This document shows positions 26,693-64,000 of a stretch of 64,000 bases of DNA, piece by piece. Within the stretch, counting starts at the first letter, position 1; each line of letters begins with the position of its first letter. A program made the position numbers and the translations under genes. The notes below the pieces were generated by a model, which saw only the letters and a list, made by a program, of their open reading frames with translations, ran no database searches and had not been told where the DNA came from. Origin of the DNA: Candidatus Sericytochromatia bacterium S15B-MN24 CBMW_12 (lineage in GTDB: Bacteria; Cyanobacteriota; Sericytochromatia; S15B-MN24; UBA4093). The stretch lies in NCBI GenBank assembly GCA_002083825.1, contig DAZV01000041.1, positions 1-64,000 on the forward strand. Direction: 5' to 3'.

Positions 26693-26852
26693 GGGGAAAT
26701 CCTCCTTCCGCGGGGACTTTGCCGGTTCCCGAACCCCTCGACGACGGGCTGTTGGCCTGCATCGACGCAGGGTTCCGGGAGATGCGAGTTAGTACATGGC
26801 GCTTCGCGATCTTACCACGAATCCGAAGTGGCGCTTGTGGTAGGATGGGGGG

Positions 26853-27332
26853 ATGATTAGTGAGCTTGAGACGAAGGGCCACATGCGCTTCCGCTTCGGG
26901 AGACGCGATCAACTCGTGCTTTACAAGCAAAAAGGCGAGTCGATGGCGCATGTCTACCTGAAGGCTGCTGCCTACGCGATCTTCTTCCGGGATGTCGAGG
27001 GTCTGGCGGTCGATCCGAAGCTTCGCTTCAAATTTCCGGCGGATCTCGCGGCGGTCGACGCCACCGGGGATCCGCGCTTCTGGGTGATCGTCGAGGACAC
27101 GTCCCTTGCGCGTCTGGAGTGGTCGCTCAAGCACGTTCCCGCGTCCGAGGTGATCCTCATGACCGAGGGCGGCGATCTCGATCGGCTGGTGGCTCAGATC
27201 CGCCGGGGGATTCATTATCGCTACACGCATAAGCGTCTGGCCATTTATCACTTCCTGAAGCCCGTGGAGGAATGGATCGATCCTGAAGGGGTCGAGGTGC
27301 CCGAGGGGGCCTACGACATTTTCCACTTCTAG
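26853..27332 (+). CDS. Hypothetical protein, weakly YaeQ-like
   Basis: Coherent 159-aa ORF; promoter-like TAGGAT 6 nt before ATG. Confidence 0.5.
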   Translation: MISELETKGHMRFRFGRRDQLVLYKQKGESMAHVYLKAAAYAIFFRDVEGLAVDPKLRFKFPADLAAVDATGDPRFWVIVEDTSLARLEWSLKHVPASEVILMTEGGDLDRLVAQIRRGIHYRYTHKRLAIYHFLKPVEEWIDPEGVEVPEGAYDIFHF

Positions 27333-27376
27333 CTTCTCGCAGGCTTCCCCCCGGAAGCTCACCCGAAACGGATGCC

Positions 27377-27412
27377 TGGGAGCCGGCCACGCGCCGGCTC
27401 CCATAATTTTTT
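27377..27412 (+). terminator. Intrinsic terminator
   Basis: TGGGAGCCGGC-CACGC-GCCGGCTCCCA then TAATTTTTT. Confidence 0.85.
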
Positions 27413-27486
27413 CTTGACAGCGTTTTCATTCGCCGGCAATGCGGCTCGACGACCATGGCAGCATCCCCTTGACGAGAGGAGTTCCC

Positions 27487-27783
27487 ATGTCTGAAATGCT
27501 ATCCACGGAAATCTGCGCCCGCGAGCTCGTGGCCCTATCCAACCTCTGCCAGCAAGGCATGAGCCTGGTCATGATTCAGATATCGCCGGTCGCTGCCGCT
27601 GCGGGAACGTCGGTTCCCGACCTCGAACTTCCGCGTGACTGCGTGCTCATCGCCGTGATCCGCGGCGAAGTCGTGCACTACCCGCGCGGCGACACCCGCT
27701 TGCAGCCCTGGGATCGAGTCTTCGCCCTGGTCGACCGGGCCTCCGAGGATGGCCTGAGGGACGTTCTAAGTCGACTGCGCTAG
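27487..27783 (+). CDS. Stand-alone TrkA-C (RCK_C) domain protein
   Basis: DLELPRDCVLIAVIRGEVVHYPRGDTRLQPWDRVFALV. Confidence 0.75.
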   Translation: MSEMLSTEICARELVALSNLCQQGMSLVMIQISPVAAAAGTSVPDLELPRDCVLIAVIRGEVVHYPRGDTRLQPWDRVFALVDRASEDGLRDVLSRLR

Positions 27784-27844
27784 CGCTTGCCAACCCTCGC
27801 TCTCTCTTTCATACTGATGTAACGATTTGTGAAAGGAGCGAGAC

Positions 27845-29077
27845 GTGCGCCGAGTCGACGTGGCGATCGTCGGGGCAGGGCCTTCGGGTTCTGCCTCAGC
27901 GCTCTTTCTGAGCGGTCACGGCCTGCAGATCCTGCTGGTCGATAGGGCCGTCTTTCCGCGTGACAAGGTTTGCGGCGAGGCGATAAGCCCTGGGGCCCTG
28001 TCCTTTCTCGATGAATTCGGTCTCCTGGCGGAAATTGAGCGCCAGGGGGCCTTTCCCTACCGCGGTGTCCTTCTGGCGACGGCCGACGGCCTCGTGGCCG
28101 AGGCATGTTACCCCGATCATCGATACGGGCTGGCCTTCCCGCGGGAAGGCCTGGACTACCTGCTCTTGAAAAGCGCCGCTTCTCGCGTGGAGGTCCTCCA
28201 GGGTACGGCGGTCGAAGGCGTTTCTCCCCAGGATGGGGGGTATCGGCTGGCCTTGAAGGGCAAGGGCGTGACGGACGCCGTCTGGGCCCGGGTGGTTATT
28301 TCGGCGGAGGGGCGTTTCGCTCGCGTTTTGACCGAGCCTTCGCGGGATCCGGGCCCCCCTGCTCGCTTCGCCGTGGTTAGCGTGCTCGAAGGGGTTGCGG
28401 GCCTCGGCAAGTTGCTTGAATTTCATTTGCTCGAGAGCGCCATGCAGGTCGTGATCAGCGCCCAGTCACCGGATCGTGCGGCGATCGCCGTGGTCCTCGA
28501 CGGCCCGCAAGCCAGTCGACGCGCTCCCGAGGCCATCAAGGACTTCCTGAGCGTGCTGAAGCGGGATCCGCTGCTCGCCGACCGAATTCGCGGCGCGCGA
28601 CTGCTCAAGCCCCCGCGGGGGATGGGACTCGAGGGCTACCGGCCCGCGGCGATCGCGGGGGACGGCTGGCTCGCCGTCGGCGACGCCGTGGGCAACATGG
28701 ATCCCATCACCGGTGAAGGCATGTTCCGCGCCTTCCGAACCGCTCAACTGGCTGCCGAGACCCTGCTGTTGGCCTTCGAGCGAGGCGACCTCGGCGCCGC
28801 GCGGCTGAGCCCCTACGTCCGGGCCGTCAATCGCGAGTTCCTGCCGACCTATCGCTTCATCGACATGGTGGTGGCCTTGAGCCGCCGCCCAAAGCTGACT
28901 CGGTTCGCCCTGCGGGCGATCGCCACGGACCCGGTTTTGGCCGAACGCATGGCTGCCTATCAGGGTGCGCTCGCGCCGGCATCGGGCTTATTCTCACCCC
29001 GGACACTCGGGCGCCTGGCCTTGGCGGGCGCTCACGCCTCGGTGACCGCTGGAACGGGCCTGGGGCCCCATACGTAG
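27845..29077 (+). CDS. FAD-dependent oxidoreductase, geranylgeranyl-reductase-like family
   Basis: DVAIVGAGPSGSASALFLSGHG; GDGWLAVGDAVGNMDPITGEGMFRAF. Confidence 0.85.
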   Translation: MRRVDVAIVGAGPSGSASALFLSGHGLQILLVDRAVFPRDKVCGEAISPGALSFLDEFGLLAEIERQGAFPYRGVLLATADGLVAEACYPDHRYGLAFPREGLDYLLLKSAASRVEVLQGTAVEGVSPQDGGYRLALKGKGVTDAVWARVVISAEGRFARVLTEPSRDPGPPARFAVVSVLEGVAGLGKLLEFHLLESAMQVVISAQSPDRAAIAVVLDGPQASRRAPEAIKDFLSVLKRDPLLADRIRGARLLKPPRGMGLEGYRPAAIAGDGWLAVGDAVGNMDPITGEGMFRAFRTAQLAAETLLLAFERGDLGAARLSPYVRAVNREFLPTYRFIDMVVALSRRPKLTRFALRAIATDPVLAERMAAYQGALAPASGLFSPRTLGRLALAGAHASVTAGTGLGPHT

Positions 29078-29090
29078 AACGGAGACCGAC

Positions 29091-30134
29091 ATGCCGAAAA
29101 TCACCGCCCTCGCGACCGCCGTTCCCCCTCGTCGCTTCGAGCAGATGAGCGCCTACCATGACCACCTGGCCCGGTTTCTGGGTGGAAATCCGATGGCAGA
29201 GCGCATTTTCGCCGGCTCGGCGATCGCCCACCGCCATGCCGTCATCGATCCCGAAACCTTCTTCGAATCCAACCTCACCACCCGGGAACGCAACGACCTC
29301 TACGTCCTTCACGCCAATCCGCTCGGCGAGGAGACCCTCCGCCGCTGCCTGGAGCGCTCCGCCACCCGCCCCGAGGAAATCGACTACTTCTTCGTGATCT
29401 CCTGCACCGGCTTCGAGATTCCGGGCCTCGACATCACCCTCGCCAAGCGCATCGGCATGCGCCCCGATGTCCAGAGAACCTGCATCCTGGGGATGGGCTG
29501 CTATGCGGCATTTCCAGGCATCAACCGCGCTCGCGAGGCCGTGCTCGCCTTCCCGGACGCCAAGGTGCTCGTGCTCGCCATCGAACTCTGCTCCCTCCAT
29601 TTCCAGACGGATGCCACCGACGAGATCGTCGTGAGCAGCGCCCTCTTCGCTGACGGCGCCGCCGCCTTCCTGCTCGAAGGACGCTCCGACGGGCCCTCCA
29701 TCGCCATCGTGGACACCCTGACCCGGACCCAGTACGATACCCTCGAGCACATGGCCTTCCGCGTCACCGACCATGGCTTCCGCATGGCCCTCTCGTCGTA
29801 CGTCCCCAAGCTCCTGGGGGAAGAGATCGAGACGTTCGCCGATCAATTACTCGAGCGCAACGGGCTCACGCGGGATCAGATCGCCTTCTGGGCCATTCAC
29901 CCCGGAGGAAAGAAGATCCTCGACCATCTGCAGGAACGCCTGGGGCTCGACGACTCCAAGCTACGGTTCTCGCGCGACGTCATGCGCGATCACGGCAACA
30001 TGTCGAGCCCCACGGTCCTCTTCGTTCTCGAGGCCATCGCCCGATCCGGCGAGCCGAAGCCGGGAGACTTCGGCGTGATGATGGCCTTCGGCCCGGGGCT
30101 CACCATGGAGTCTTGCCTCGTCCGCTGGGAATAA
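29091..30134 (+). CDS. Type III polyketide synthase (chalcone/stilbene synthase family)
   Basis: Cys in ILGMGCYAAFPG, His in WAIHPGGKKIL, Asn in DHGNMSSPTVLFVL; C-terminal AFGPGLTMES. Confidence 0.9.
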   Translation: MPKITALATAVPPRRFEQMSAYHDHLARFLGGNPMAERIFAGSAIAHRHAVIDPETFFESNLTTRERNDLYVLHANPLGEETLRRCLERSATRPEEIDYFFVISCTGFEIPGLDITLAKRIGMRPDVQRTCILGMGCYAAFPGINRAREAVLAFPDAKVLVLAIELCSLHFQTDATDEIVVSSALFADGAAAFLLEGRSDGPSIAIVDTLTRTQYDTLEHMAFRVTDHGFRMALSSYVPKLLGEEIETFADQLLERNGLTRDQIAFWAIHPGGKKILDHLQERLGLDDSKLRFSRDVMRDHGNMSSPTVLFVLEAIARSGEPKPGDFGVMMAFGPGLTMESCLVRWE

Positions 30135-30166
30135 TCTTCATGGCCCCCTCGGGGAAGGAGGAAGCA

Positions 30167-30739
30167 ATGGTGAACGCGCTGCGAAAGCATCTGGCCATGC
30201 GCGAAGGCTTGAGGATGGATCGACCGGGACTCGTGCCCAGCGCCGTCCTGGTGCCGATCGTGCTGGGACCTGGCGGACCGTCCGTGCTCTATACCAAGCG
30301 AAGCGAGCATTTGAACCAGCATCGCGGGCAGATTTCCTTTCCCGGAGGAAAATGGTCGCCGGAGGACGGGACCCTGCTTTCCACGGCCCTCCGGGAGTCC
30401 CACGAGGAGGTCGGGCTCGACCCTCGCGACATCGAGGTCCTGGGGGAACTCGACGAGGTCTGGACGCCGACCGGCTTCACCATTCGCCCCTACGTGGGCC
30501 TGGTCCAGGGGCCCTATCCCTATCGGGTCAATCCCCACGAGATCGATCGCTTGATCGAGGTCCCCTGGGGACGACTCCCGCATGCCGAGGCCTTCGGCTG
30601 CGAGATCAAGATGGTGAACGGCGAACCGCTGGAACTCTGTCATTTCACCGTGAACGACGATCTCATCTGGGGAGCGACCGCCCGGATCACGCGCAACCTC
30701 ATGCGCCTCTTGGCGCGGGTCGACGGCGAGATCGCCTGA
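30167..30739 (+). CDS. NUDIX hydrolase, CoA pyrophosphatase-like
   Basis: GQISFPGGKWSPEDGTLLSTALRESHEEVGL. Confidence 0.85.
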   Translation: MVNALRKHLAMREGLRMDRPGLVPSAVLVPIVLGPGGPSVLYTKRSEHLNQHRGQISFPGGKWSPEDGTLLSTALRESHEEVGLDPRDIEVLGELDEVWTPTGFTIRPYVGLVQGPYPYRVNPHEIDRLIEVPWGRLPHAEAFGCEIKMVNGEPLELCHFTVNDDLIWGATARITRNLMRLLARVDGEIA

Positions 30740-30743
30740 AGGT

Positions 30744-31577
30744 CTAGGATCCCGTGCCCTGATAGCGGTTGACGCCTTTTTTCCAGACGAGATAAGCCAG
30801 CCCGAACCAGACGACGCCGACCAGCGGTGTCAAGAGTCCCAGTTGCTGGGCGGGGAGCAAAGAACCGTCGGACTTCCCGAGGATCGTCGTGGTCGGGTAG
30901 TAGGTGGTGAAGGCGACCGGCAGGGCCACGGTCAGGATCAGCTGCACGCCCTTTCCGTAGATACTGATCGGATAGCGGACCAATTCGTTCTGGATCTGCT
31001 GCACCGTCCACGTCAGCCCCGAGACCTTGACGATCCAGAACGACGCGCACGCCACCAGGAGCGAGACCGCCGCCTGGATGAGTCCCGCCCCGATGACCAC
31101 GGCCACGAGGAAAGCGATCAGCGGCAGGCTCCAGCTGATCTCCACCACCCGGATCGCCTGCGAGAAGACGACCAGTCCCACGATCATGTCGTTGAGGGAG
31201 GTGGCGGTTCCCTGGAGGAGAATTTGAAAGAGCGGATTGAGGGGGCGGATCAGGTACCGGTCGAAGGTCCCCTGGCGAACCGCATGCGGGATGCGCAGGA
31301 TCGGAAAGAAGAAGGTGGTGTAGACGCCGCGCGCGAGCAGTCCCAGGGCGTAGAGGAAGATCATCTCGCGGAAGTTCCAGCCGTTGAGAGAGGGGAAGCG
31401 ACTCAACAGCGCCCAGATGATGCCGATCGACACGGCATGGAAGGCGACCGTGTTGCCGAACCAGAGCAAGAAGCTGACCCGGTACTCCATGCGGCTTCTC
31501 AGATTGGCCATCCAGAACGTGCCGTAGATCCGAATGAGTTCGGAGACGCGCCATGGGCGCCAGGGCGTGCTAGCCAC
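30744..31577 (-). CDS. ABC-2 type permease (COG3694-like)
   Basis: Multi-pass; overlaps and co-oriented with a second permease and an ATPase. Confidence 0.7.
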   Translation of the reverse strand: MASTPWRPWRVSELIRIYGTFWMANLRSRMEYRVSFLLWFGNTVAFHAVSIGIIWALLSRFPSLNGWNFREMIFLYALGLLARGVYTTFFFPILRIPHAVRQGTFDRYLIRPLNPLFQILLQGTATSLNDMIVGLVVFSQAIRVVEISWSLPLIAFLVAVVIGAGLIQAAVSLLVACASFWIVKVSGLTWTVQQIQNELVRYPISIYGKGVQLILTVALPVAFTTYYPTTTILGKSDGSLLPAQQLGLLTPLVGVVWFGLAYLVWKKGVNRYQGTGS

Positions 31578-32391
31578 CTTGCACCACGACTTTGCGAACT
31601 CCCCGCATCCACATCACCGCGCAGATTCCCCCCAGCGCCAGCACCCAGAGTGCTTGAATGCCGAGAAATGCCAGGGCGGCGGTGCCCTGAAGCTTGCCGA
31701 CGTAGATGGAGAGCGGTGTGCTGTAGATGGCCTGAAAGGGGAGAGCGAGGGCGAGCGACTGGAACGATCCCGGGAAGAACCAGACGGGCACGACGGCGCC
31801 CGACAGGGCCATGGAAACCCAGCGGAGGATCATCTGGATGCCGAAGGTCTCGATGATCCAGAAGGCGGTGAGGTTGAGCATGAGCGTCATGCCGAAGTTG
31901 ACGGCCACTCCCAGGAGCGCGCTGAGCACGAAGAGTCCGCTCGCCATGGGAGTGGGAGGAGCCACGAGGTGAATCAGCGGCGTCAGCACGACGAGGGCTG
32001 GAATCACCTGCAGGAGCCCGAATCCCATCGCGCCTGCACCGTCGGCGACGAGCGTCAAGGGGTACCTGACGGGGCGGAAAAGATCGGTGGCGATGTCCCC
32101 GTCCCGGATCTTGTCCTCGACTTGATCCGCCGACTCCGCGGCGGCGTTCACCACCAGCCCGTAGAGCAAGGAGACTGCCGAATAGGTCACGATCAGCGGC
32201 AGGGTGAAGCCTTCAGGGGCCGCCTCGCTGCCCCGCGACTGGTAGAGCGCCGTCCAAAGCGCATAGAGCAAGTACAGCCGGGCGCCGACCCCGAAAAGGC
32301 TGGTGAGCACGTCGACCCGGTAGGTGGTCTCACGCTTGAAGGCTAGGCGGGTGAAGGCCAGGTAAGCGTCGATTCCGGCCCTTTCCCTCAC
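31570..32391 (-). CDS. ABC-2 type permease (COG4587-like)
   Basis: Multi-pass, DQVEDKIRDGDIATDLFRPVRYPL. Confidence 0.7.
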   Translation of the reverse strand: MRERAGIDAYLAFTRLAFKRETTYRVDVLTSLFGVGARLYLLYALWTALYQSRGSEAAPEGFTLPLIVTYSAVSLLYGLVVNAAAESADQVEDKIRDGDIATDLFRPVRYPLTLVADGAGAMGFGLLQVIPALVVLTPLIHLVAPPTPMASGLFVLSALLGVAVNFGMTLMLNLTAFWIIETFGIQMILRWVSMALSGAVVPVWFFPGSFQSLALALPFQAIYSTPLSIYVGKLQGTAALAFLGIQALWVLALGGICAVMWMRGVRKVVVQGG

Positions 32392-33374
32392 GGCATGAGC
32401 CCCTTCTGGTAAATGGAGCGGATGATGTCCTCCAGGGGCGCTTCCTGGATCATGAGGTCCACCACGGGGTACTGGGCGCTCAAGCGGCCGACGAGTTCCT
32501 GGGAGGAGATGCGGTTTCGGTCGAACCTCAGCGTGGCGACGGCCCCTTCGCGCATGACGACTTCGGTTCCGGGAATGTCGAGGTCAGCGGGCGGCTCGGC
32601 GAAGACCACGGTCATGAGGCGTTCGCGCCCCGAGCGATCCTTGAGCTTCTCGACGGTTCCGTCGTAGAGCACCTGCCCCTTGTCAATCAGGATCATGCGC
32701 CGGCAGAGCCTTTCGATGTCCTGCATGTCGTGGGTGGTGAGGATCACCGTCACCTGGCGCTCTCGGTTGATGAGCTGGATGAACTCCCGGATGCGCTCCT
32801 TGGCGACCACGTCCAGGCCGATGGTCGGCTCGTCGAGGAAGAGGATGGGCGGATCATGCATGAGGGCTGCGGCCAGGTCTCCGCGCATCCGCTGGCCGAG
32901 GGAGAGCTGCCTCACCGGGGTCTTGATGAACTCCGAGAGCCCCAGGACGTCGTCGAAGCGCTTGAGGTTGGCCTGGTATCGCGCCTCGTCCACCCGGTAG
33001 ATGTGCTTCAAGAGCTCGAAAGACTGCCCCAGCGGCAGATCCCACCAGAGCTGGGTGCGCTGGCCGAAGACGACCCCGATCTGGTGGGCGTTTCGTTCGC
33101 GCTCTTTCCAGGGCACCAGGCCCCCGATCCGGACTTCCCCCGAGGTGGGGGTGAGAATGCCGGTGAGCATCTTGATGGTGGTGGACTTGCCGGCTCCGTT
33201 GGGGCCGACGTAGCCGACCAGTTCGCCGGGCTCGACGGTGAAGGAGACGCCGCGGACGGCGGCCTTCTCCTCGTGCTCGGTGGTGAAAAGGGTGCGGAAG
33301 GCTCCCCCGCGACCTTCGAAGCGCTTGGGGACCCGGAAGGTCTTGGTGAGGTCTTTGGCGATGATCTGGGGCAT
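32388..33374 (-). CDS. ABC transporter ATP-binding protein (COG4586-like)
   Basis: VGPNGAGKSTTIKMLTG, LSLGQRMRGDLAAALMHDPPILFLDEPTIGLD. Confidence 0.9.
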   Translation of the reverse strand: MPQIIAKDLTKTFRVPKRFEGRGGAFRTLFTTEHEEKAAVRGVSFTVEPGELVGYVGPNGAGKSTTIKMLTGILTPTSGEVRIGGLVPWKERERNAHQIGVVFGQRTQLWWDLPLGQSFELLKHIYRVDEARYQANLKRFDDVLGLSEFIKTPVRQLSLGQRMRGDLAAALMHDPPILFLDEPTIGLDVVAKERIREFIQLINRERQVTVILTTHDMQDIERLCRRMILIDKGQVLYDGTVEKLKDRSGRERLMTVVFAEPPADLDIPGTEVVMREGAVATLRFDRNRISSQELVGRLSAQYPVVDLMIQEAPLEDIIRSIYQKGLMP

Positions 33375-33453
33375 GCCCTCCAGTATAACCCGCAATCAGG
33401 CGACCGCCACGAAGCGCCATGACGGAATCCGAGATCATGCGAGCGGTCTACGG

Positions 33454-35145
33454 TCATCGGCTCGGGCGGGCGCGCTGGGTCGGGTCGGTCTCGGACGCGA
33501 GGCTCTGGCGGGCGGTTTCGGACCGGGTGGAACTGAGGATCCAGCGCTGGACGATGGCCATCCCCTGGGCGCTATCCCTCGACTGAAGGGCATGCTGTAA
33601 GCGGGTGGCCTGGCGCTCGAACTCGGATGCCTTCGCAAGGGCATCTCGGTAGACGCCCTGGGTTTCCAGCGTGAGTTCGGCGGCCTTCTCCAGCGCGATC
33701 ATGGCGTTGGCGGAGTCCATGCTGGCCAGGAGGCCTGATCCCATGGCGAGGACGCCCCGGGCGCGATCGCCGCTGGAGACGTTGAAGTCCCTGGCCTGCT
33801 TCATGAGCGCGGTCAGCTGCGTCATGGCTCGGCTGAGTTCACCGCCGGCTATCGTTTGCTGAAGCTGGTTGGCGAGGGCGGGCAGCGCTTGGGCCTGATC
33901 GATCTGCTCCTGGTTGATGAGGCCCGCGTCCTTGGCGATTTCCCCCGCGAGGGCCGCGGCGCGTCCAAAATCCTTGGCCTGCAGGGATTGATTCAGCCGG
34001 CGGCAAGACTCGGCGAAAGTCCGGGCTTTTTGGACGGTCGACGCGGGGAGAATGCCCGTGTTCATGGCCAGTTGCAAGGCTGCCGAGGCGTGATCTCCCG
34101 AGCGGAGCGCGCCCGAGACATCCCTGGCTCCCTTGGCGTAGTCCGCGGCCATGGCCAGGGTGTCGGACACCTTTTGGTCGCCTCCGAATTCGGTGTTGGC
34201 GGTACTTCCCAGGGCGGCGGTGACGGCGATGCCGCCCAGGAGGTCGCCGTTGGTGAAGGCCGTCCAAGCCAGCTCGGACCGCTTGGCATAGGTGGCGGCT
34301 GTCTGAGCCATCGCGCTCGCCTTCAATACCACCTGGTCGGCGGTGGTCCCGAGGGCCTCGGCCCCGGCGCCGAGCAGGCCGGCTGCGGATCCGGCGAGGG
34401 CTCCCCAGTTGCCGGTTTCTATCGCGCTGGCCGTGGCCACGACTCCCTTTGCGACCTTGGAGACTTCTCCCGCTGTCCTGGCGAGGGCCATGGCGGTGCT
34501 TCCCACTGCCTTGGCTCCCAAGGCGCCGAGCCCGCCGGCCGCCGCGCCCGATACCGAGGCCAGGCCCGTCATGGCTTTTTTCAAGTCGCCGGTCTTGATT
34601 CCGTCCACGACGAGCCGGGCGCCGTCGAAGGCTTGCAGAGCGGCCAAACCGAGGGTCACGACCTGCATGCCCGGGATGACCATGCAGGCGATCGAAGAGG
34701 CCATCACCAGATAGGAGCCATGGGCGTCCCAGAGGTCCCCCGCCACCTTTCCGGCATCCTTGATGGCGTCCCAGGCCTTGGCGCCGACGTCCTGGACCTG
34801 CTTCACCGCGGCTTCGAGGGATTCCCGGGGGTGGGTGACGACCCTGGCGGCATTCCCGAGGAACGTGGTCACGCCCGCAAAGGCGCCGCCTAGAAGGGAG
34901 CCGAGGGTGGGGGCTTTTTTCCGCGATGGGGTCCTGCTTTTGGGGCGGCCGGCCTCGGCCCTGAGGACTCCTTTGCCGTTGGTCCGCGCGCGGCGGGTAT
35001 CCGCGCGGGAGCCTGAGGGCGCGGCCTGGTCCGGTGTTTCGAGCGGGGCCGGTTCCGGGTGGCGAACGTGGCGTTGCCGGTCAACACGCCTGTAAAGTTG
35101 CATCAATTTTTCCAGCTGGGCCAGGTCGATTCCGGGATCGCTCAT
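33454..35145 (-). CDS. Ala-rich repeat-containing hypothetical protein
   Basis: 563 aa; recurrent G-(D/N/E)-x3-A helical units; hydrophobic segment ASSIACMVIPGMQVVTLGLAAL. Confidence 0.6.
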   Translation of the reverse strand: MSDPGIDLAQLEKLMQLYRRVDRQRHVRHPEPAPLETPDQAAPSGSRADTRRARTNGKGVLRAEAGRPKSRTPSRKKAPTLGSLLGGAFAGVTTFLGNAARVVTHPRESLEAAVKQVQDVGAKAWDAIKDAGKVAGDLWDAHGSYLVMASSIACMVIPGMQVVTLGLAALQAFDGARLVVDGIKTGDLKKAMTGLASVSGAAAGGLGALGAKAVGSTAMALARTAGEVSKVAKGVVATASAIETGNWGALAGSAAGLLGAGAEALGTTADQVVLKASAMAQTAATYAKRSELAWTAFTNGDLLGGIAVTAALGSTANTEFGGDQKVSDTLAMAADYAKGARDVSGALRSGDHASAALQLAMNTGILPASTVQKARTFAESCRRLNQSLQAKDFGRAAALAGEIAKDAGLINQEQIDQAQALPALANQLQQTIAGGELSRAMTQLTALMKQARDFNVSSGDRARGVLAMGSGLLASMDSANAMIALEKAAELTLETQGVYRDALAKASEFERQATRLQHALQSRDSAQGMAIVQRWILSSTRSETARQSLASETDPTQRARPSR

Positions 35146-43226: not shown

Positions 43227-44018
43227 TCATGGGCCTAACCGGTCTTCCCAGCATAGATCGGCCATGAGACCGAAGTGATCGGAGACGAAACCCCGGGCGG
43301 GATCGTCGAAGCGCAGTTGCACCCGGGCGATGGTCGCCCGGGCATCCACGAAGAGGTAGTCCAGCCGCCGGTCGGGCATGGAGTAGTTGCCGGTGAGCGG
43401 GTTGGCCTGAGACCAAGTATGCCCGTCGAGCTGGGGGTTTGCGTGCTGCCATGCGTCCTGGAGGAGTTTGGCCACCTCGGCGATGCCGGCTTCGTCGGGG
43501 GGGGCGTTGAGGTCGCCGGCCAGCACGAAGCGTTCGGGGGGCTCGAGCCAGCCGTAATCGCGCGCCCGCGCCAGAATGGCATCGAGCTGCCGCGCGCGCC
43601 GAAAGGCGTCCTCGGGGGGCCAGGAGAGGTGGGTGACGGCCATATGCAGGGCTCGCGGCGGCTGCATGACCGTGGCGAGTATCGCGACCCGGTTGTCGGG
43701 ATGTCTCTGACCCGGCGGCAAATGCCGGTTTTCGACCAGTTGAAGGGGCCAGCGGGAAAGCAGCGCCACTCCCCCCTGTTCTTCGCTATGCACCTCGGCC
43801 GGATTGCCGTAGGGAGCGTAGACCAGCGACGGAAGCCCCAACCGGATCCCGAGGTCGAGCGCCTGGTGGTAAAAGGGCTTTTTCAAGATGGCGACTTCCT
43901 GAAGGGCCAGCACGTCCAACTCCCAGCCTTGCAACTGCTCCAGCAGCAGGGATCGCCGGCGTTCGAACCACGCCGACTCGACGCCCTTCAGGTTGAGAGT
44001 CAGGATCCGAAGTTCCAT
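43227..44018 (-). CDS. Endonuclease/exonuclease/phosphatase family protein
   Basis: LRILTLNLKG...LALQEVAI...LAGDLNAPPDEAG...RRLDYLFV...VSDHFGLMADL. Confidence 0.85.
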   Translation of the reverse strand: MELRILTLNLKGVESAWFERRRSLLLEQLQGWELDVLALQEVAILKKPFYHQALDLGIRLGLPSLVYAPYGNPAEVHSEEQGGVALLSRWPLQLVENRHLPPGQRHPDNRVAILATVMQPPRALHMAVTHLSWPPEDAFRRARQLDAILARARDYGWLEPPERFVLAGDLNAPPDEAGIAEVAKLLQDAWQHANPQLDGHTWSQANPLTGNYSMPDRRLDYLFVDARATIARVQLRFDDPARGFVSDHFGLMADLCWEDRLGP

Positions 44019-51485: not shown

Positions 51486-52676
51486 GTGAGAAACGATGGT
51501 CGACAAGAAGAACAATTGGCCGAGGCCCTGATTCGGCTGGAATCGGGCGACGCGCTCGGTGCCGAGGCGCTGCTCCATGGTCTGAAGGGATCGCAGGCCC
51601 AGAAGCTCCGAGCTCGCTTGGCTTGCGCGCGCGGGCAGCATCTCGAGGCTATCAAGCTGCTTCGCGCCGGGGCCTTCGAGCAGGAAAGCGCCGAGCAGCA
51701 TGTCCTGCTGGGGACATGCTGGCAGCACCTGACGCAGTGGGAATCCGCGGAGAAGGCCTTGCGTCGGGCGGTCCTGCTCGATCCCGCCCGCACCGAGGCT
51801 TTCGTCCTGCTAGGAACGACACTCTACCAGCAGGAGCGGCACCGAGAGGCCGTGCAGGCGATGGAACGTGCGCTGAGCATCGATTCGCGCGCGCTCTTGG
51901 CCCGGTACCACCTCGCCCAGATCTGCATGGAACTCGGCGATTTCAAGCGAGCCCTGTCTCAGCTTCATATCCTGAGGAGCCTCAAGCCGGATGATGCTCC
52001 GGTTCATCGCTTGCAGGCCGCCATCTTCCTCCAGGTGAAGGATTTCCGGCAAGCCCTGGTGGAGCTCTGCTGGCTGGTCGAGGCCGGTCACGCCGATACC
52101 TGGTGTTTCAGCACGATGGGCGGAGCGTATCGGGCCATCGGGGAGAACGTGCAGGCGCTCAAGGCCTATGAGTATGCCTTGAAGCTCGATGCCACCCTGA
52201 GCGACGAGTCCGCCTTCGCCGCTCAACTCAACGAGGAGCTCGGGCAGTTCGAGGCGGCACTGCGGGGGTATCGAACCTTGCGGCGGGATCTGACCTGGGG
52301 AGAGCGTGCTCGGGCAGCAGTCGAGCGGCTCGAAAGTCACCTGGCCGTTCTGCCGCTCTCGGCGAATCCGGCTGTCGATCTTCCCGACTTTCAGGGGTTT
52401 CAGCCACCGCCGGTCTCAAAGCAAGGCAACTTGCCGTTGGAGCGCGAATCGCGAGTCGGGACGCCGATCGGCATGGCTGAGGTCGGCTACGAGGGCCCGC
52501 CGCCGATCCTCGAGCGTTTGAAGCGAAATCTCGCGGAGCTTGCCGAGCGATTGGGCCTGAAGGCGCGCTCGCAAGAGGTCCTGGACCGGATTGCGCCGGC
52601 GACCGTGAAGGAGGGGGTCGCCGTGGCGCTGCGGAAATTCCCCCTCAAACGCTTCTTTGGAGACCGGAAGCCATGA
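51486..52676 (+). CDS. TPR-repeat protein
   Basis: Repeated helical pairs, e.g. WESAEKALRRAVLLDPARTEAFVLLGTTLYQQERHREAVQAMERALSIDSRALLARYHLA; GTG start. Confidence 0.8.
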   Translation: MRNDGRQEEQLAEALIRLESGDALGAEALLHGLKGSQAQKLRARLACARGQHLEAIKLLRAGAFEQESAEQHVLLGTCWQHLTQWESAEKALRRAVLLDPARTEAFVLLGTTLYQQERHREAVQAMERALSIDSRALLARYHLAQICMELGDFKRALSQLHILRSLKPDDAPVHRLQAAIFLQVKDFRQALVELCWLVEAGHADTWCFSTMGGAYRAIGENVQALKAYEYALKLDATLSDESAFAAQLNEELGQFEAALRGYRTLRRDLTWGERARAAVERLESHLAVLPLSANPAVDLPDFQGFQPPPVSKQGNLPLERESRVGTPIGMAEVGYEGPPPILERLKRNLAELAERLGLKARSQEVLDRIAPATVKEGVAVALRKFPLKRFFGDRKP

Positions 52677-54846: not shown

Positions 54847-54859
54847 TTCGGGGGATTTA

Positions 54860-55750
54860 CTAGACGGAGGCGAGCTGCTTCATCCGCTCGACGACCAGGT
54901 CGCCGATTTGCGCGGTGGTGTCGGCCACGGGTACTCCTGCTGCCAGGAGAGCGTCGACCTTGCCCTGCGCGGTGCCCTTGTTGCCGGAAACCAGCGCGCC
55001 GGCATGGCCCATGCGCTTGCCTTCGGGAGCGGTGCGTCCGCCGATGAAGCCCACGACCGGCTTGGTCATGAAGTTCTTGATGTACTCGGCGGCGTCCTCT
55101 TCGTCCGAACCGCCGATTTCACCGGCCATGACGACCAGTTCGGTATCGGGATCTTCCTGGAAGGCCTTCAGCACGTCGACGAAGTTGGTCCCGATGATGG
55201 GATCGCCGCCGATGCCCACGATGGTGGACTGGCCGTAGCCGCGGTTGGTCAGGTCCGCGGCGATCTCGTAGGTCAGGGTGCCGGAGCGCGAAACCACGCC
55301 GACTTTCCCCTTCTTGAAGATCATCGCGGGCATGATGCCGAGCTTCGCTTCGTCGGGGGTGGTGAGGCCGGGGCAGTTGGGGCCGATGAGGCGGCTCTTG
55401 GACTTCGCCAGCACCGGGTAGACCCGCATCATGTCGAGGGTGGGGATGCCCTCGGTGATGCAGACGATCAGGGGGATCCCCGCGTCGATGGCTTCGAGGA
55501 TCGAGTCGGCCGCGAACGGGGGTGGAACGAAGATGATGCTGGCGTTTATCTCGGGATGCGCCACCAGCGCCTGCTTGGCCGTGTCGTAGACGGGCACGCC
55601 GTGGGTTGAGGTCATGCCGCCCTTGCCGGGGGTCAAGCCCGCCACCACCTGGGTGCCGTATTCGATCATCTGGGAGGTGTGGAAGGACCCTTCGCGGCCC
55701 GTGACGCCGTGCACCAGCAGGCGCGTGTCTTTGTTGATGAAGATGCTCAT
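54860..55750 (-). CDS. sucD: Succinyl-CoA ligase alpha subunit
   Basis: [45 protein letters not shown]...[10 protein letters not shown]. Confidence 0.95.
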
Positions 55751-55780
55751 TCGTTAAACCTCAAATTTCAAAGTTGAAAG

Positions 55781-56926
55781 CTAGCGGACTGCTGCGCCGT
55801 ATGCGACTTCGACCACCTTGCGGGCGGCTTCCTGCATACTCGCCGCGGGAATGAGCTTCGTGCCTTCCAGCAGCATGCGGCCTTCTTCCTCGCGAGTTCC
55901 CGAGAAACGGACCACGATGGGCACCTTGATGTCCATGGTGCTGGTGGCCTCGAGGATGCCCTTGGCCACTTCGTCGCAACGGGTGATGCCGCCGAAGATG
56001 TTGATGAGCACCGCCTTGACCTTGGTTTCCATCAGCACGACGTCGAGGGCGTTGCGAACGACCTCGGCCTTGGCGCCGCCGCCGATGTCCAGGAAGTTGG
56101 AAGGCTGGCCGCCCTCGCGGCTCACGGCGTCGAGGGTGGTCATGACCAGGCCCGCGCCGTTGCCGATGATGCCGATGTCACCCGAGAGGTGAACGTAGGT
56201 GAGGCCCCGCAAGCGCGCCTCGTCCTCGATCGCGTTGTCGTCCTCGGACTCCTGCCACTGAGCGAGCTCCGGCTGACGGAAGAGGGCGTTGTCGTCGATG
56301 TCCATCTTGCAGTCGGCGGCGATGACTTCGCCTTCCTTGGTGATGACCAGGGGGTTGATCTCGGCGAGCGTCGCATCCGAGCCCACGAAGGCGTTGTAGA
56401 GGCCGCGCAGGAACTTGGTGATGGGCTTGACGTAGGCCTTGTCGAGGTTGGCTCCGAAGATCAGGTCGCGGATCTGGAAGTCCTGAAGTCCCAGGGTCGG
56501 ATCCACCCAGACGCGGGAAATCTTCTCGGGGGTCTTCTCGTTGACTTCCTCGATGTCCATGCCGCCCTCGGCCGAGACCATCACGATGATCTGCTTGGTA
56601 TCCCGATCGAAGAGCATCCCGAGGTAGTATTCCTTGTCGATGTTGATCGCGCCCTCGACCAGCACCTTCTTGACCTTCAATCCCTTGAGGTCCATGCCCA
56701 GGATCTGCTTGCCGACTTCAAAAGCCTCGGTCGGGGTCTTGCCAAGCTTGACGCCGCCCGCTTTTCCGCGGCCGCCGACGTGGACCTGGGCCTTCACGAC
56801 CACGGTCCCGCCAATTTGCTCGGCGATTTCCTTGACCTGGTCATTGGTGAAGGCAACCTGACCCTTGGTGGTAGGCACTCCATATTTCTGGAGGACCAGC
56901 TTGCCCTGAAATTCGTGGATCTTCAT
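55781..56926 (-). CDS. sucC: Succinyl-CoA ligase beta subunit
   Basis: MKIHEFQGKLVLQKYGVPTTKGQVA...VKAQVHVGGRGKAGGVKL. Confidence 0.95.
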   Translation of the reverse strand: MKIHEFQGKLVLQKYGVPTTKGQVAFTNDQVKEIAEQIGGTVVVKAQVHVGGRGKAGGVKLGKTPTEAFEVGKQILGMDLKGLKVKKVLVEGAINIDKEYYLGMLFDRDTKQIIVMVSAEGGMDIEEVNEKTPEKISRVWVDPTLGLQDFQIRDLIFGANLDKAYVKPITKFLRGLYNAFVGSDATLAEINPLVITKEGEVIAADCKMDIDDNALFRQPELAQWQESEDDNAIEDEARLRGLTYVHLSGDIGIIGNGAGLVMTTLDAVSREGGQPSNFLDIGGGAKAEVVRNALDVVLMETKVKAVLINIFGGITRCDEVAKGILEATSTMDIKVPIVVRFSGTREEEGRMLLEGTKLIPAASMQEAARKVVEVAYGAAVR

Positions 56927-57144
56927 CCTGTCGATCTCCTTGTGGTGCGATGGAGGAGCGATCGGCCTAGCTGCCGAGGCTTGCTTCCTCATGATACCAA
57001 CAAGACGCAGTCTAGGCCAGGGTTCCGGGGAGGTAAAGAACCATATCCCCGCTGATTCGACAGGGAGCGACGCATCGTTGTTCTCGCGAGGGAACTGCTC
57101 TAGACTCGCTGCCACGGATCCCCAATCCTATCAAGGGAGGAATC

Positions 57145-57435
57145 ATGAAGCGTCAAACTGTGAAGAACCTCAGCTACGTGGCCTTGTGGGCAGGGGCCGC
57201 CTCGGTGCTCGTCTCCGGCGGCATCTACGCGGCGGATCTCATGCGCGCCGAAAAAACCAGCAAGCGGCGTGAGGGCAGCCTCTTCATCGGACTCTGGGCT
57301 CCCTCGTTCTTCGCCCTCTCCGAGATGCTCGATCGGATCGCCGAGCAAGACGATCGCTACATGGGCGTAAGAATCACCGACCGAGAAGAGCGGATGCCGA
57401 TCGCCAAGCATGCCCGCGAACTGATTCAGCGCTGA
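57145..57435 (+). CDS. Hypothetical membrane-anchored protein
   Basis: GGGAGGAATC before ATG; one N-terminal hydrophobic segment. Confidence 0.6.
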   Translation: MKRQTVKNLSYVALWAGAASVLVSGGIYAADLMRAEKTSKRREGSLFIGLWAPSFFALSEMLDRIAEQDDRYMGVRITDREERMPIAKHARELIQR

Positions 57436-57442
57436 CCGGTCC

Positions 57443-57468
57443 GGGAGGGAGCCGAAAGGTTCCCTCCC
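57443..57468. terminator. Hairpin downstream of the 96-aa gene, no U-tract
   Basis: GGGAGGGAGCC-GAAA-GGTTCCCTCCC, one G-U pair. Confidence 0.5.
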
Positions 57469-57502
57469 GCTTCGGGACCTTGGCCGCAGGAAGGAGGACG
57501 CC

Positions 57503-57583
57503 ATGCGCGCGAGAGCCGTCAACGGTTTCGAGCTCGGACCGAACGCCGAGCGCCTTTTTGCGATCGCGGGGGGTCTGTCATGA
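57503..57583 (+). CDS. 26-aa uORF/leader peptide coupled to the SDR gene
   Basis: AGGAAGGAGGACGCC-ATG; MRARAVNGFELGPNAERLFAIAGGLS; stop TGA overlaps next ATG as ATGA. Confidence 0.5.
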   Translation: MRARAVNGFELGPNAERLFAIAGGLS

Positions 57584-58674
57584 GAGCGTCGAAAAAAGCG
57601 CGGTTGTGGCTGAACGCCTTGGGTGGAGCCTATCTCGTCTACCGGATGCTCAGGCCGAAGCCGCGGATCTCGCTGGAGGATCAGGTGGTGCTGATTACCG
57701 GAGGATCGCGAGGACTGGGCTTGCTGATGGCCCGGGAGTTCGCGCTTCAAGGGGCCCGGCTGGCGATTTGCGCCCGCGATTGCATCGAGCTCGAGCACGC
57801 GCGCCACGATCTCGAAAGTCGGGGAGCGGAGGTCTTCGCCGTCGCATGCGACGTCGCTCGGCAGGAAGAGGTGAACCGGATGGTCGCTTCGGTCGAGGCC
57901 CATTACGGTCGCATCGACGTTTTGGTCAACAATGCGGGGATCATCCAGGTCGGTCCCCTCGAGAGCATGACCGCCCAGGACTTCGAGCAGATCATGGCGA
58001 TCAATTTCTTCGGGGCGGTGTACACGACGCTCGCCGTGACCCCGGGGATGCGCCGACGGGGATACGGTCGGCTCGTGACCATCGATTCCATCGGGGGGCG
58101 AGTTGCCACGCCGCACTTGATTCCCTACGACGCCTCCAAGTTCGCGCTGCGCGGATTCTCCGAGGGGATTCGCACGGAACTGGCCCAGCATGGGATCACG
58201 GTGACGACGATCCTGCCGGGGCTCATGCGCACCGGATCGCCGGTCAACGCGCTCTTCAAGGGCCGTCAGGAGTGGGAGTTCACGTGGTTCACCATCGCGG
58301 ACTCGCTGCCTTGGCTCTCCATGGATGCTCGCGAGGCTGCCGAGCGGATCGTGCTGGCATGCCAGCGCGGGGAGGCGGAGATCACGTTGAGCGCCCGCGC
58401 TCGAATCATCGGGCTGGTCCATGATCTCGCCCCTCCTTTCGCCATGAGCATGCTCACCCTAGCCAACCGTTTGCTACCCAGCGCCGACGGCAGGGGAACG
58501 GAATCCGCGCGAGGCATGGAGTTGGTGAGCCCGCTGGCGCCGTCCTGGTTGACCCACTGGACCAACGAGGCTGCCAAGCGAAACAATCAGTTCGGCGGTC
58601 AGTATGCTCCCGCTCCCGAGCATGCCCGTAAGGTCGGTCTGACGCATGATGGGGGCAAGCGCGACGGAGCTTGA
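57580..58674 (+). CDS. Short-chain dehydrogenase/reductase
   Basis: VVLITGGSRGLGLLMAREFA...VLVNNAGI...PYDASKFALRGFSEG. Confidence 0.9.
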   Translation: MRASKKARLWLNALGGAYLVYRMLRPKPRISLEDQVVLITGGSRGLGLLMAREFALQGARLAICARDCIELEHARHDLESRGAEVFAVACDVARQEEVNRMVASVEAHYGRIDVLVNNAGIIQVGPLESMTAQDFEQIMAINFFGAVYTTLAVTPGMRRRGYGRLVTIDSIGGRVATPHLIPYDASKFALRGFSEGIRTELAQHGITVTTILPGLMRTGSPVNALFKGRQEWEFTWFTIADSLPWLSMDAREAAERIVLACQRGEAEITLSARARIIGLVHDLAPPFAMSMLTLANRLLPSADGRGTESARGMELVSPLAPSWLTHWTNEAAKRNNQFGGQYAPAPEHARKVGLTHDGGKRDGA

Positions 58675-58675
58675 G

Positions 58676-58711
58676 CGCGAGGCCGCCGTTCCGAAGAATG
58701 GCGGCCTCGCG
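58676..58711. terminator. Hairpin between convergent genes, no U-tract
   Basis: CGCGAGGCCGCC...GGCGGCCTCGCG. Confidence 0.55.
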
Positions 58712-58743
58712 AGGACTGGATGGGACGACGGGCGAATTCGGGG

Positions 58744-59163
58744 TCAGCGCTGGCAGAGCTCCAGGAGCACTCCTCCGGTCGACTTCGGGTGAACGAAGGC
58801 TATCATGGCGCCTCCGGCTCCCTTGCGGGGGGTTTCATCGATGAGGCGAACGCCTTCGGCCTTGAGTCGCGCGAGCGCCATGACCACGTCATCGACGCCG
58901 AGGGCGACGTGATGGATGCCTTCACCGCGCTTTTCGAGAAACTTGGCCACCGGGCTGTCCGGGGTGGTGGGTTCGAGCAACTCGATCCGGCTCTCACCGA
59001 GCGCGAACACGGCCGTTCGCACCCCTTGATCGGGCACATCCTCGATTTCATGCAGCTTTAGCCCGAGCATCCCAGCATAAAGGGGGAGGGCTGCGTCGAT
59101 TGAGCGGACGGCGATGCCCAGGTGATCGATCTTGCCGATCTGCGTGAACTTGGGATCCAGCAT
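58744..59163 (-). CDS. mce: Methylmalonyl-CoA epimerase (VOC fold)
   Basis: [27 protein letters not shown]...[13 protein letters not shown]. Confidence 0.9.
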
Positions 59164-59164
59164 G

Positions 59165-60822
<1,658 letters not shown>

Positions 60823-60823
<1 letters not shown>

Positions 60824-62571
60824 CAGGCAATCACCACGAGCGCCGCGCCTCCTTCGACCGTCTGGCCCGCGGCGCAGCCGAGCGTCTCGACGATGCCCGC
60901 CATGGGAGCCAGGATTTCGGTTTCCATTTTCATCGCTTCGAGTACCAGCAGGACGGTGCCGACCTCCACTGCCTGTCCCACGTCAACCAGGACGCGCTGA
61001 ACCATGGCATGCATGGGGGCGGTGACTTTTCCCGAGGCCGCGCCGGCGGAGAGCGCGGAGCCCGAATGGCTGCTCGGACGCTTGGGTTTGGCGACGGTCG
61101 CGGTGGCCGTCCCCCCCTTCTCAGAGACCGAAACGGTGAAGAGCTGGCGATTGACCTCGACCCGGAATTCCCGGGCCTGGCCGAAGACGGGGCCCTCCGC
61201 CGCGGTCATCGCCGTGGGGGCTGTCGGAGTCAGGGCCGCGAGATCCTCGCGGGTCAGGTCCGTCCCGATGAAGTGGGTCGACATGTCGCCCGCGATGAAC
61301 TTGGGGTGCTCGAGGATGCGCTTGAAAAGCGGAATGGTGGTGGGCACTCCTTCGATTTCGAACTCGGCGAGGGCGCGCTTCATGCGGGCGATCGCCTCCT
61401 GGCGATCGGAGCCCCAGGTGATGAGCTTCGCGAGCAGCGAATCGTACATCTCGGGTACCTTCCAGCCCGCGTAAACCGCGGCGTCCACCCGGATTCCGGG
61501 ACCTTCGGGCGGAACGTACCGCGTGATCAGTCCGGGGTTCGGGCGAAAGTTCTGAGCGGGATCCTCGGCGTTGATCCGGCATTCGAGCGACCAACCCATG
61601 GGTTGGAGATCTTTCAGCCGCTCGGGAACGTGGCCGCCCGCGGCGATCCGGATCTGCTCCTTGACGAGATCTACCCCGTAGACCATCTCGGTGACGGTAT
61701 GCTCGACCTGGATGCGGGTGTTCATTTCGAGGAAGTAGAAAGCGCCATCCTGGAAGAGGAACTCGCAGGTGCCGGCTGAGTCGTAGCCCACCGCCTGAGC
61801 CATGCGAACGGCCGTGTCCCCCATGTCGCGCCGCATCTCGGGCGTGAGCGCCACGCTCGGCGCCTCCTCGACCAGCTTCTGGTGGCGGCGTTGGATGGAG
61901 CACTCCCGTTCGCCGAGGTGAATGACCGTGCCGTGCTTGTCGGCGAGGATCTGCACCTCGATGTGGCGCGGCTGGCCGAGGTAGCGTTCCATGTAGACTT
62001 CGCCGTTGCCGAAGTAGCTCTCGCCTTCGCGAATCGCCTTGGCGAGGGCGGCTTCGGCTTCGGCGGGGCCGTTGACGACGACGAGTCCGCGCCCGCCGCC
62101 GCCGGCGGCGGCCTTGATGGCGATGGGCCAGCCGTGTTCGTCACCGAATGTCATGACGGCGGCGGCTTCGGTCACGGGCTCGGTGGTGCCTGGGACGATG
62201 GGGACGCCGGCTTTCTGGGCGAGGCGGCGGCTGACTGTCTTCGAGCCCATGAGGGCGATCGCTTCGGCATGCGGGCCGATCCAGGTGAGGCCGGCGTTTT
62301 GGCAGGCGCGGGCGAAGTCGGGGCTTTCGGCGAGGAAGCCATAGCCGGGGTGGACGGCGTCGGCTCCGGCGCGCTTGGCTATGGCTATCAGGGCCTCCTG
62401 GTCGAGGTAGGAGGTGTCGAGGTGGAAGGCTTGGTCGGCGAGGCGGACGTGGCGGGCCTCTTGGTCGGGGGCGGTGTAGACGGCTGCGGTGGCGACGCCG
62501 AGCTCTTGGCAGGCGCGGATCACGCGCAGGGCGATTTCTCCACGGTTGGCGATGAGCACTTTCGAGAACAT
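60823..62571 (-). CDS. Biotin-dependent acyl-CoA carboxylase alpha subunit (biotin carboxylase + BCCP)
   Basis: [25 protein letters not shown]...C-terminal [17 protein letters not shown]. Confidence 0.9.
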
Positions 62572-62815
62572 GTTGGCTATCCTATCCGCGGGCTGCGTCG
62601 TCGCAGCCGTTTGCGCTAGAGTCGTCAGGTTACCAGGCGGATGGCCCCGGGGGGGCGAGAGGGACCGAGCCCCATGATACCAGCAGAAGCGCGGCTTGGC
62701 GTCGTGTCGGCGTAAATTTCCCGGGGGATCCCCTCAACCCTAGCCCGTCACCCTCCAATCGCCCTTGGTCAAAGCGCTCTCGGCAGTCGCGGGTCCGGGG
62801 TTTATGCTGGAGGCG

Positions 62816-63061
62816 ATGAAGCGACGAGACGTGCCGCGCCAGGCGGCCAGTTGGCTGGTTTTCTTGGGTTCGGTCGTGCTCTTGGGGGCTTGCGGGGCAT
62901 TTCCGGGTTTGCCCGATTCCCATGGGTTGCCGAACGAGACGCCTGCCTTTCCTGGACCCTTCGAGAAGTATGATAGCGCGCGGCCGGCGGCCTTCAAGCG
63001 CGCTCCCGATCCGGTCGCGTCCCCGTCTCCGCCGGCGAGCGGGAGCGTGGGCCTGCGCTGA
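62816..63061 (+). CDS. Small putative lipoprotein
   Basis: MKRRDVPRQAASWLVFLGSVVLLGACGAFPG. Confidence 0.6.
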   Translation: MKRRDVPRQAASWLVFLGSVVLLGACGAFPGLPDSHGLPNETPAFPGPFEKYDSARPAAFKRAPDPVASPSPPASGSVGLR

Positions 63062-63104
63062 TCGGCGCTTGCGGGGAGGCGCGACGGCGCGCTAGCATGG
63101 CGCC

Positions 63105-64000
63105 ATGCCAACGATCAACGACGCGCACCTCGCACCGGAGGCCTTTTCCGACCCCTTACTGAGCTGGTTTCGCGCAGAGCAGCGGGCCATGCCGTGGCGC
63201 GGGGGGCGCGATCCCTATTTCATCTGGGTTTCCGAGGTCATGCTCCAGCAAACCCAGGTGGCCACCGTCATCCCCTACTACGAACGCTTCATCTCGCGTT
63301 TTCCGACGATTCAGGCCCTGGCAAACGCTCCGATGGACGACTTGCTCAAGTGCTGGCAAGGCCTGGGCTACTACTCGCGGGCCCGGAATCTGCAAAAGGC
63401 CGCCCAACAGGTCGTTTCGGAGCACGGGGGGGTCTTCCCGCGAGACTTCAAGGCCATCCGTTCGCTATCGGGGATCGGAGACTACACGGCGGGGGCCATC
63501 GCCTCGATCGCCTTCAACCAGCCGCATCCCGCGGTCGACGGCAACGTGATGAGGGTCCTGTCCCGCTGGTTCCGCATCTCCGAGAACGTCGCCAAGCCCC
63601 AGACCAAGCGCCGCTTCGAGGAGATCGCGCTTCGCTTGATTCCCGAGGGGCGCGCCTGGGAATTCAACCAGGCCTTGATGGAACTCGGAGCCTTGGTCTG
63701 CCTGCCGCGCAGTCCGCGCTGCGAGTCCTGCCCCGTGGCCAGCATCTGCCGAGCCTGGTTCCATGGGGATAGCGAGGCGTACCCCGTGAAAACGAAGAAG
63801 GCCCCGCCCAGGCCCGTCAGCTTCGCCGTCGCCGTCCCGATTCGCGACGGCTCGGTGTATCTTTGTCGCCGTCCGGTTGACGGCCTCCTGGGGGGGCTCT
63901 GGGAGTTCCCCGCCTTCCCGCTCGAAGTCGGAGAACGACCCGCCCAGGTCATCCAGGTGGCCTTGAACCTCCCGGAACTGGACTGGATCCCGCTTTGCAC
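63105..64000 (+). CDS. mutY: A/G-specific adenine glycosylase, partial at the window edge
   Basis: Read by hand: VSEVMLQQTQVATVIPYYERF...GIGDYTAGAIASIAF...VDGNVMRVLSRW...CLPRSPRCESCPVASIC. Confidence 0.9.
   Translation, partial: MPTINDAHLAPEAFSDPLLSWFRAEQRAMPWRGGRDPYFIWVSEVMLQQTQVATVIPYYERFISRFPTIQALANAPMDDLLKCWQGLGYYSRARNLQKAAQQVVSEHGGVFPRDFKAIRSLSGIGDYTAGAIASIAFNQPHPAVDGNVMRVLSRWFRISENVAKPQTKRRFEEIALRLIPEGRAWEFNQALMELGALVCLPRSPRCESCPVASICRAWFHGDSEAYPVKTKKAPPRPVSFAVAVPIRDGSVYLCRRPVDGLLGGLWEFPAFPLEVGERPAQVIQVALNLPELDWIPLC

What the first reader, a model, noticed from the sequence alone, without database searches (positions are those of the whole stretch)
26841..63107. Recurrent TANNNT-N6/7-start-codon architecture predicting leaderless genes
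Gene starts on both strands have a -10-like hexamer exactly 6-7 nt before the start codon. N6 cases: TATTCT/ATG 14182 (fur), TAGGAT/ATG 26853, TAGAGT/ATG 44018(-), TATGAT/GTG 51486, TAGCAT/ATG 63105 (mutY, with TTGCGG 18 nt upstream). N7 cases: TAGGAT/ATG 62571(-), TATACT/ATG 33374(-), TATGCT/ATG 62816; the last two also carry GGAGG. A transcript from such a -10 would begin at or next to the start codon. Most other genes here have ordinary Shine-Dalgarno sites, so two initiation modes seem to coexist.
Basis: partly seen in the sequence, partly recalled or inferred. Interest (0 to 1): 0.7.

Follow-up and report, generated by a model that had tools for sequence, protein, structure and literature searches.

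The report
Genes starting right at their promoters
In this little-studied relative of the cyanobacteria, a few percent of genes have their promoter so close to the start codon that the messenger RNA should begin at the start codon itself, a known but minor way of starting protein synthesis that I found no earlier description of for this group.

Summary
All eight motif/start pairs are in the sequence as described. A start caller that ignores upstream sequence recovered seven of them in the window (1.7 expected by chance); the eighth (62816) lies in a small ORF it did not call.

In a 1.14 Mb sample of the genome, TANNNT is enriched only at first-T positions -12 and -13. At -12 there are 22 cases against 7.8 expected. 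In-frame versus out-of-frame ATG/GTG gives OR 3.2 (p 7e-4) at -12 and p 0.05 at -13. Two of three relatives of the same class show both enrichments; E. coli shows none at -12.

The architecture is kept between orthologues more than chance. It is very clear for the Fur-family gene (TTGAC-17-TANNNT-N6-start in several genomes). Orthologues also keep it for 26853, 62816 and 51486, and partly for 33374 and mutY. It is weak for 44018 and absent for 62571. The GGAGG at 33374 and 62816 sits too close to the ATG to be this genome's normal SD.

Best reading: roughly 3-4% of genes are leaderless, transcribed from sigma-70-type -10 boxes, beside a dominant SD mode. This is the known bacterial TA-led leaderless class in a new lineage. 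Start-site mapping is missing.

The parts
14147..14152 (+). -35 box TTGACG of the Fur-family gene, 17 nt before the -10
   Evidence: read directly; TTGAC invariant in G000, G001, G004, G010
14162..14176 (+). inverted repeat TTTAGAA-CTA-TTCTA overlapping the -10; probable operator of a Fur-family regulator
   Evidence: one of two exact TAGAANNNTTCTA sites in the genome; operator role inferred
14170..14175 (+). -10 box TATTCT, N6 before ATG 14182
   Evidence: same spacing in G001, G004, G010, G008; N7 with GTG in G007
14182..14628 (+). Fur-family regulator, PerRB/Irr-like, predicted leaderless
   Evidence: PF01475 64.7 bits; NF047461 PerRB 160 bits, below its cut-off of 250
26841..26846 (+). -10 box TAGGAT, N6 before ATG 26853
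   Evidence: orthologues: N6 in G001, G005, G009; N7 in G007, G008, G011
26853..27332 (+). 159-aa conserved protein of unknown family, predicted leaderless
   Evidence: orthologues in 12 other genomes of the class; no Pfam or NCBIfam match
33382..33387 (-). -10 box TATACT, N7 before ATG 33374; a GGAGG follows at -7..-3
   Evidence: homologue G016 has TATACT at N7, G015 at N8; GGAGG out of the genome's SD register
32388..33374 (-). ABC transporter ATP-binding protein, predicted leaderless
   Evidence: PF00005 98 bits
44025..44030 (-). -10 box TAGAGT, N6 before ATG 44018
   Evidence: read directly; weak conservation, only G001 has TACCAT at N7
43227..44018 (-). endonuclease/exonuclease/phosphatase family protein, possibly leaderless
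   Evidence: PF03372 75 bits
51474..51479 (+). -10 box TATGAT, N6 before GTG 51486
   Evidence: homologues: TAAGAT N6 in G008, TACAAT N7 in G010
51486..52676 (+). TPR-repeat protein, predicted leaderless, GTG start
   Evidence: TPR families
62579..62584 (-). TAGGAT, N7 before ATG 62571; probably chance or an auxiliary promoter
   Evidence: orthologues have SD sites (for example agaagga in G001) and no motif at the aligned start
62803..62808 (+). -10 box TATGCT, N7 before ATG 62816; a GGAGG follows at -7..-3
   Evidence: small lipoprotein at the same place in G001 has TAGAAT-N7-ATG
62816..63061 (+). 81-aa probable lipoprotein (LLGAC lipobox read by eye), predicted leaderless
   Evidence: no family match
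63093..63098 (+). -10 box TAGCAT, N6 before ATG 63105, with TTGCGG 63069-63074
   Evidence: TACGAT-N6-GTG in G007 and G008, nothing similar in G001, G003, G004
63105..64000 (+). mutY, A/G-specific adenine glycosylase, predicted leaderless; the gene runs on to contig position 64235
   Evidence: TIGR01084 352 bits, over its cut-off

Best explanation
A minority of genes in this organism, about 3-4% overall and mostly first genes of a transcription unit, are leaderless. The housekeeping sigma factor recognises a -10 box TANNNT (often TANNAT) whose last base lies 6-7 nt before the start codon, with a weak -35 in most cases, so transcription starts on or one base before the A/G of the start codon. 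Such an mRNA has no Shine-Dalgarno site, and the ribosome (by analogy the 70S particle) begins on the 5'-terminal start codon. Most other genes use SD-led initiation. In the Fur-family gene the same -10 box is also half of an inverted repeat, so the repressor probably controls its own leaderless promoter. Shown: motif position, its enrichment, orthologue conservation, genomic context. Inferred: start site, 70S initiation, autoregulation.
For: Enrichment at -12 only, and at -13 more weakly. Repeats in G009 (-12 p 2e-3, -13 p 1e-4) and G015 (p 3e-3, p 0.04). E. coli has none at -12. Orthologue pairs share the state: OR 14, p 1.3e-4, control offsets p 0.25. Fur promoter: conserved -35, -10 and N6 spacing with varying spacer letters in four aligned genomes. 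Orthologue contexts for 26853, 51486, 33374 and 62816. SD-like sites 42% versus 70%. GGAGG at 33374 and 62816 starts at -7, where only 6 of 950 genes have one starting at -8 to -5; the norm is -12 to -9. Divergent starts with under 200 nt between genes are favoured: OR 3.7, p 2e-9. In C1:169676-169722 two divergent genes are 47 nt apart, each with its own -10 at N6/N7.
Against: No transcript data. The enriched class is small, so about 40% of single hits (24 of 59) could be chance. In G001 the in-frame versus out-of-frame test was not significant (p 0.63 at -12; small sample). Part of the divergent-gene preference is base composition: control offsets also show OR 2.2, p 0.003. -35 boxes are only slightly better than in controls (25% versus 14% with >=4 matches). 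62571 is not conserved and 44018 weakly so.
Confidence: 0.83

Rival explanations
1. The hexamers are chance TANNNT matches in AT-richer intergenic DNA; the genes are SD-led or start elsewhere.
For: Background rate is about 0.7% per position and start; the out-of-frame control predicts about 24 of the 59 in-frame hits. Likely right for 62571.
Against: Enrichment at only two adjacent offsets, depletion at neighbours, conservation between orthologues, and seven in the window against 1.7 expected.
Confidence: 0.08
2. The -10 boxes are real, but the true start codon is downstream, giving a short leader; the reader's start is only an in-frame ATG.
For: For 26853 and 51486 the coding model preferred a start 30 nt downstream. 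A second TANNNT peak at -43 marks ordinary leadered promoters.
Against: For 26853, orthologue sequence extends to the upstream start and the motif-start spacing is kept. Enrichment is against in-frame starts specifically, not out-of-frame ones.
Confidence: 0.06
3. The conserved element upstream of the Fur-family gene is a repressor operator, with no bearing on leaderless initiation.
For: Inverted repeat TTTAGAA-CTA-TTCTA, conserved in relatives.
Against: The fixed N6 distance to the start, the TTGAC at 17 nt and the lack of an SD are not needed for an operator. Operator and leaderless promoter are compatible. Other genes lack the repeat.
Confidence: 0.03

Closest known systems
TA-led leaderless genes of bacteria (Zheng et al. 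2011, PMC3160421)
   Same: TANNNT about 12 bp before the start codon, read as a sigma-70 -10 box; found in high-GC genomes with little information in the middle letters; coexists with SD-led genes.
   Different: Their Table 2 has no Cyanobacteria row, and they say many cyanobacterial genomes use neither SD-led nor leaderless genes. Here SD use is high and a small leaderless class is present.
-10 motif of Deinococcus-Thermus (Zhong et al. 2025, PMC12340547)
   Same: Same motif and position; there shown by mutation and reporters to drive leaderless mRNA.
   Different: About 30% of ORFs carry it there; here about 3-4% after correction for chance.
Leaderless mRNAs of photosynthetic cyanobacteria (CvkR/cas12k in Anabaena, PMC9938897; Synechococcus UTEX 2973, PMC6091082)
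   Same: Same phylum. CvkR is a repressor from a leaderless mRNA, 82 nt from its divergent target cas12k. 51 leaderless mRNAs cited for Synechocystis and 19 start sites called leaderless in UTEX 2973.
   Different: Those rest on mapped start sites; here only sequence evidence, in a different, unstudied class.
Irr / PerR boxes of Fur-family regulators
   Same: The fur promoter repeat resembles the Irr box (ICE, TTTAGAA-N3-TTCTAAA) as I recall it; Irr boxes can span the start site.
   Different: The protein is below the NCBIfam cut-offs for Irr and PerRB; binding untested; only one promoter in the genome has the exact repeat.

Membership tests
Bacterial TA-led leaderless genes | TANNNT box with first T at about -12 to the start codon, above shuffled controls | tested here: met
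   22 versus 7.8 expected at -12; in-frame versus out-of-frame p 7e-4
Bacterial TA-led leaderless genes | enrichment confined to the offsets that put the start site on the start codon | tested here: met
   only -12 and -13 of offsets -8 to -19
Bacterial TA-led leaderless genes | no SD site in the usual register | tested here: inconclusive
   SD-like 42% versus 70%, but the motif itself displaces the SD zone; GGAGG cases are out of register
Bacterial TA-led leaderless genes | mostly first genes of transcription units | tested here: met
   divergent gaps under 200 nt OR 3.7; rate 2.4% for inner genes versus 27% in divergent gaps under 100 nt in G000
Bacterial TA-led leaderless genes | architecture kept in orthologues | tested here: met
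   OR 14, p 1.3e-4; fur alignment
Bacterial TA-led leaderless genes | mRNA 5' end at the start codon; translation without a leader | not testable with these tools
   needs dRNA-seq/Cappable-seq and a reporter
Irr or PerRB (Fur family), for the 14182 protein | score over the curated NCBIfam cut-off | tested here: not met
   PerRB 160 of 250 bits, IrrA 75.6 of 150 bits; it is a Fur-family member by Pfam

The most novel reading that the evidence does not exclude
The non-photosynthetic sister classes of Cyanobacteria keep a genome-wide, Deinococcus-like leaderless class beside strong SD use, inherited from the phylum's ancestor and mostly lost in photosynthetic cyanobacteria. In this class, regulators such as the Fur-family gene combine -10 box, operator and translation start in about 20 bp, so one repressor site closes both promoter and mRNA start.
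Probability: 0.22. Interest if true: 0.5.

Novelty: new member of a known kind. Interest (0 to 1): 0.36.

Why it matters
It adds an unstudied class of Cyanobacteriota to the lineages with a detectable leaderless gene set, in a phylum where earlier sequence surveys found little. Practically, gene finders that expect an SD site may misplace starts here; 62816 and 26853 are examples. It also marks a conserved, testable set of leaderless genes, with the Fur-family promoter as the best single case.

Tried and rejected
Plain upstream base composition: dominated by SD purines and C at -1, not informative for leaderless starts. Regulon of the fur palindrome: only one other exact site, in an AT-rich stretch, so dropped. 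accC-like 62571 as leaderless: rejected because orthologues have SD sites. E. coli -13 count (11 versus 5, p 0.057) taken as noise, but it warns that N7 alone is weaker evidence than N6. ICE consensus paper not held.

Full report
Where the window lies. It is G000:C38:1-64000 of a 3.9 Mb, 61-contig genome, 97% complete with 6.7% contamination. A genome of the same order (G006) has a contig of the same length as JACQUT010000019.1, 'Cyanobacteria bacterium NC_groundwater_1444', carrying the same orthologue. The organism therefore belongs to Cyanobacteriota, in a small class of which 18 species are held. I infer a non-photosynthetic class such as Sericytochromatia; this was not tested.

Observation. 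Every listed hexamer, spacing and start is there. To ask whether this beats chance I wrote a dicodon-based gene caller that picks starts from coding score and start codon only, and ran it on 1.14 Mb. TANNNT with its first T at -12 occurs 22 times in 963 genes, against 7.8 (sd 2.6) when columns are shuffled between genes. The flanking positions are depleted, as expected where SD sequences sit.

A stricter control compares in-frame plausible ATG/GTG starts with out-of-frame ATG/GTG in the same regions. Only two of twelve offsets are enriched: -12 (35/1688 versus 9/1351, p 7e-4) and -13 (24 versus 10, p 0.05). The excess over control is about 35 genes of 950, hence my 3-4% estimate.

Other genomes. 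The same test gives -12 p 2e-3 and -13 p 1e-4 in G009 (same order), and p 3e-3 and 0.04 in G015 (same class, 51% GC). G001 (same family) is too small a sample to be significant. E. coli K-12, treated identically, has no -12 excess and a borderline -13.

Orthologues. Among reciprocal best hits between the four sampled genomes, a gene with the motif in one tends to have it in the other: 6 shared where independence predicts about 1, OR 14, p 1.3e-4. Control offsets show no significant effect (p 0.25). The pairs are few and not all independent.

Gene by gene. The Fur-family gene at 14182 is the strongest. TTGAC, 17 nt, TANNCT, 6 nt, start is kept in G000, G001, G004, G010 and G008, and with 7 nt and GTG in G007. 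Its -10 is half of TTTAGAA-CTA-TTCTA, a probable Fur-family operator. 26853 keeps N6 in G001, G005 and G009, and N7 in G007, G008 and G011; 51486 has N6/N7 in G008 and G010; mutY has N6 in G007 and G008 but not in G001, G003 or G004; 33374 has TATACT at N7 in G016 and N8 in G015. 62816 has a small lipoprotein counterpart at the same place in G001 with TAGAAT-N7-ATG. 44018 is weak. 62571 is not supported, because its orthologues carry SD sites.

The GGAGG puzzle. At 33374 and 62816 GGAGG begins at -7, leaving two bases before ATG. In this genome GGAGG begins at -12 to -9 in 144 cases and at -8 to -5 in only 6. These two are therefore unlikely to work as normal SD sites, and leaderless initiation remains the better reading.

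Context. Motif-bearing starts are favoured in divergent gaps under 200 nt (43 of 305 versus 66 of 1560, OR 3.7, p 2e-9), although control offsets also show a smaller effect from base composition (OR 2.2). A telling example lies at C1:169676-169722, where divergent rsmG-like and exonuclease-like genes (named from their protein starts only) are 47 nt apart and each has its own -10 at N6 or N7, leaving little room for leaders.

Mechanism and standing. The anatomy matches the known TA-led leaderless class: Zheng et al. 2011 and Zhong et al. 2025, who proved the motif to be a promoter -10 in Deinococcus. Leaderless mRNAs are known in photosynthetic cyanobacteria too, including the repressor CvkR. 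What is added is the lineage, the size of the class, and a conserved set of genes. Transcription starts were not measured; everything about the RNA is inference.

Noticed in passing
window 14162-14176: Inverted repeat TTTAGAA-CTA-TTCTA overlaps the -10 of the Fur-family gene; related repeats (TAGACTTAGTCTA and similar) sit at the same place in G010, G008 and G007. Probable autoregulatory operator.
   Followed up: partly
G000 sample, upstream of starts: Second TANNNT peak at first-T position -43 (20 versus 7.5 expected): ordinary promoters with leaders of roughly 32 nt, often with AGGAG-type sites.
   Followed up: no
G000 sample, positions -1 and -2 of starts: C at -1 in 52% of genes (T only 6%) and C at -2 in 41%, in operon-internal genes as well; recalls the dipyrimidine before starts that Zheng et al. 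report for Cyanobacteria.
   Followed up: no
G000:C14:371570(-), C19:83788(-), C19:22548(+): Three TnpB-like (IS200/IS605 type, named from their N-terminal sequence) paralogues, each with TAGAAT-N6-ATG: a mobile element carrying its own leaderless start.
   Followed up: partly
G000:C1:169676-169722: 47-nt gap between two divergent genes with two back-to-back -10 boxes, 22 bp apart, at N7 and N6 from their starts.
   Followed up: partly
window 62816-63061: Small probable lipoprotein gene between the accC-like gene and mutY, with a counterpart at the same place in G001; missed by the coding model.
   Followed up: partly
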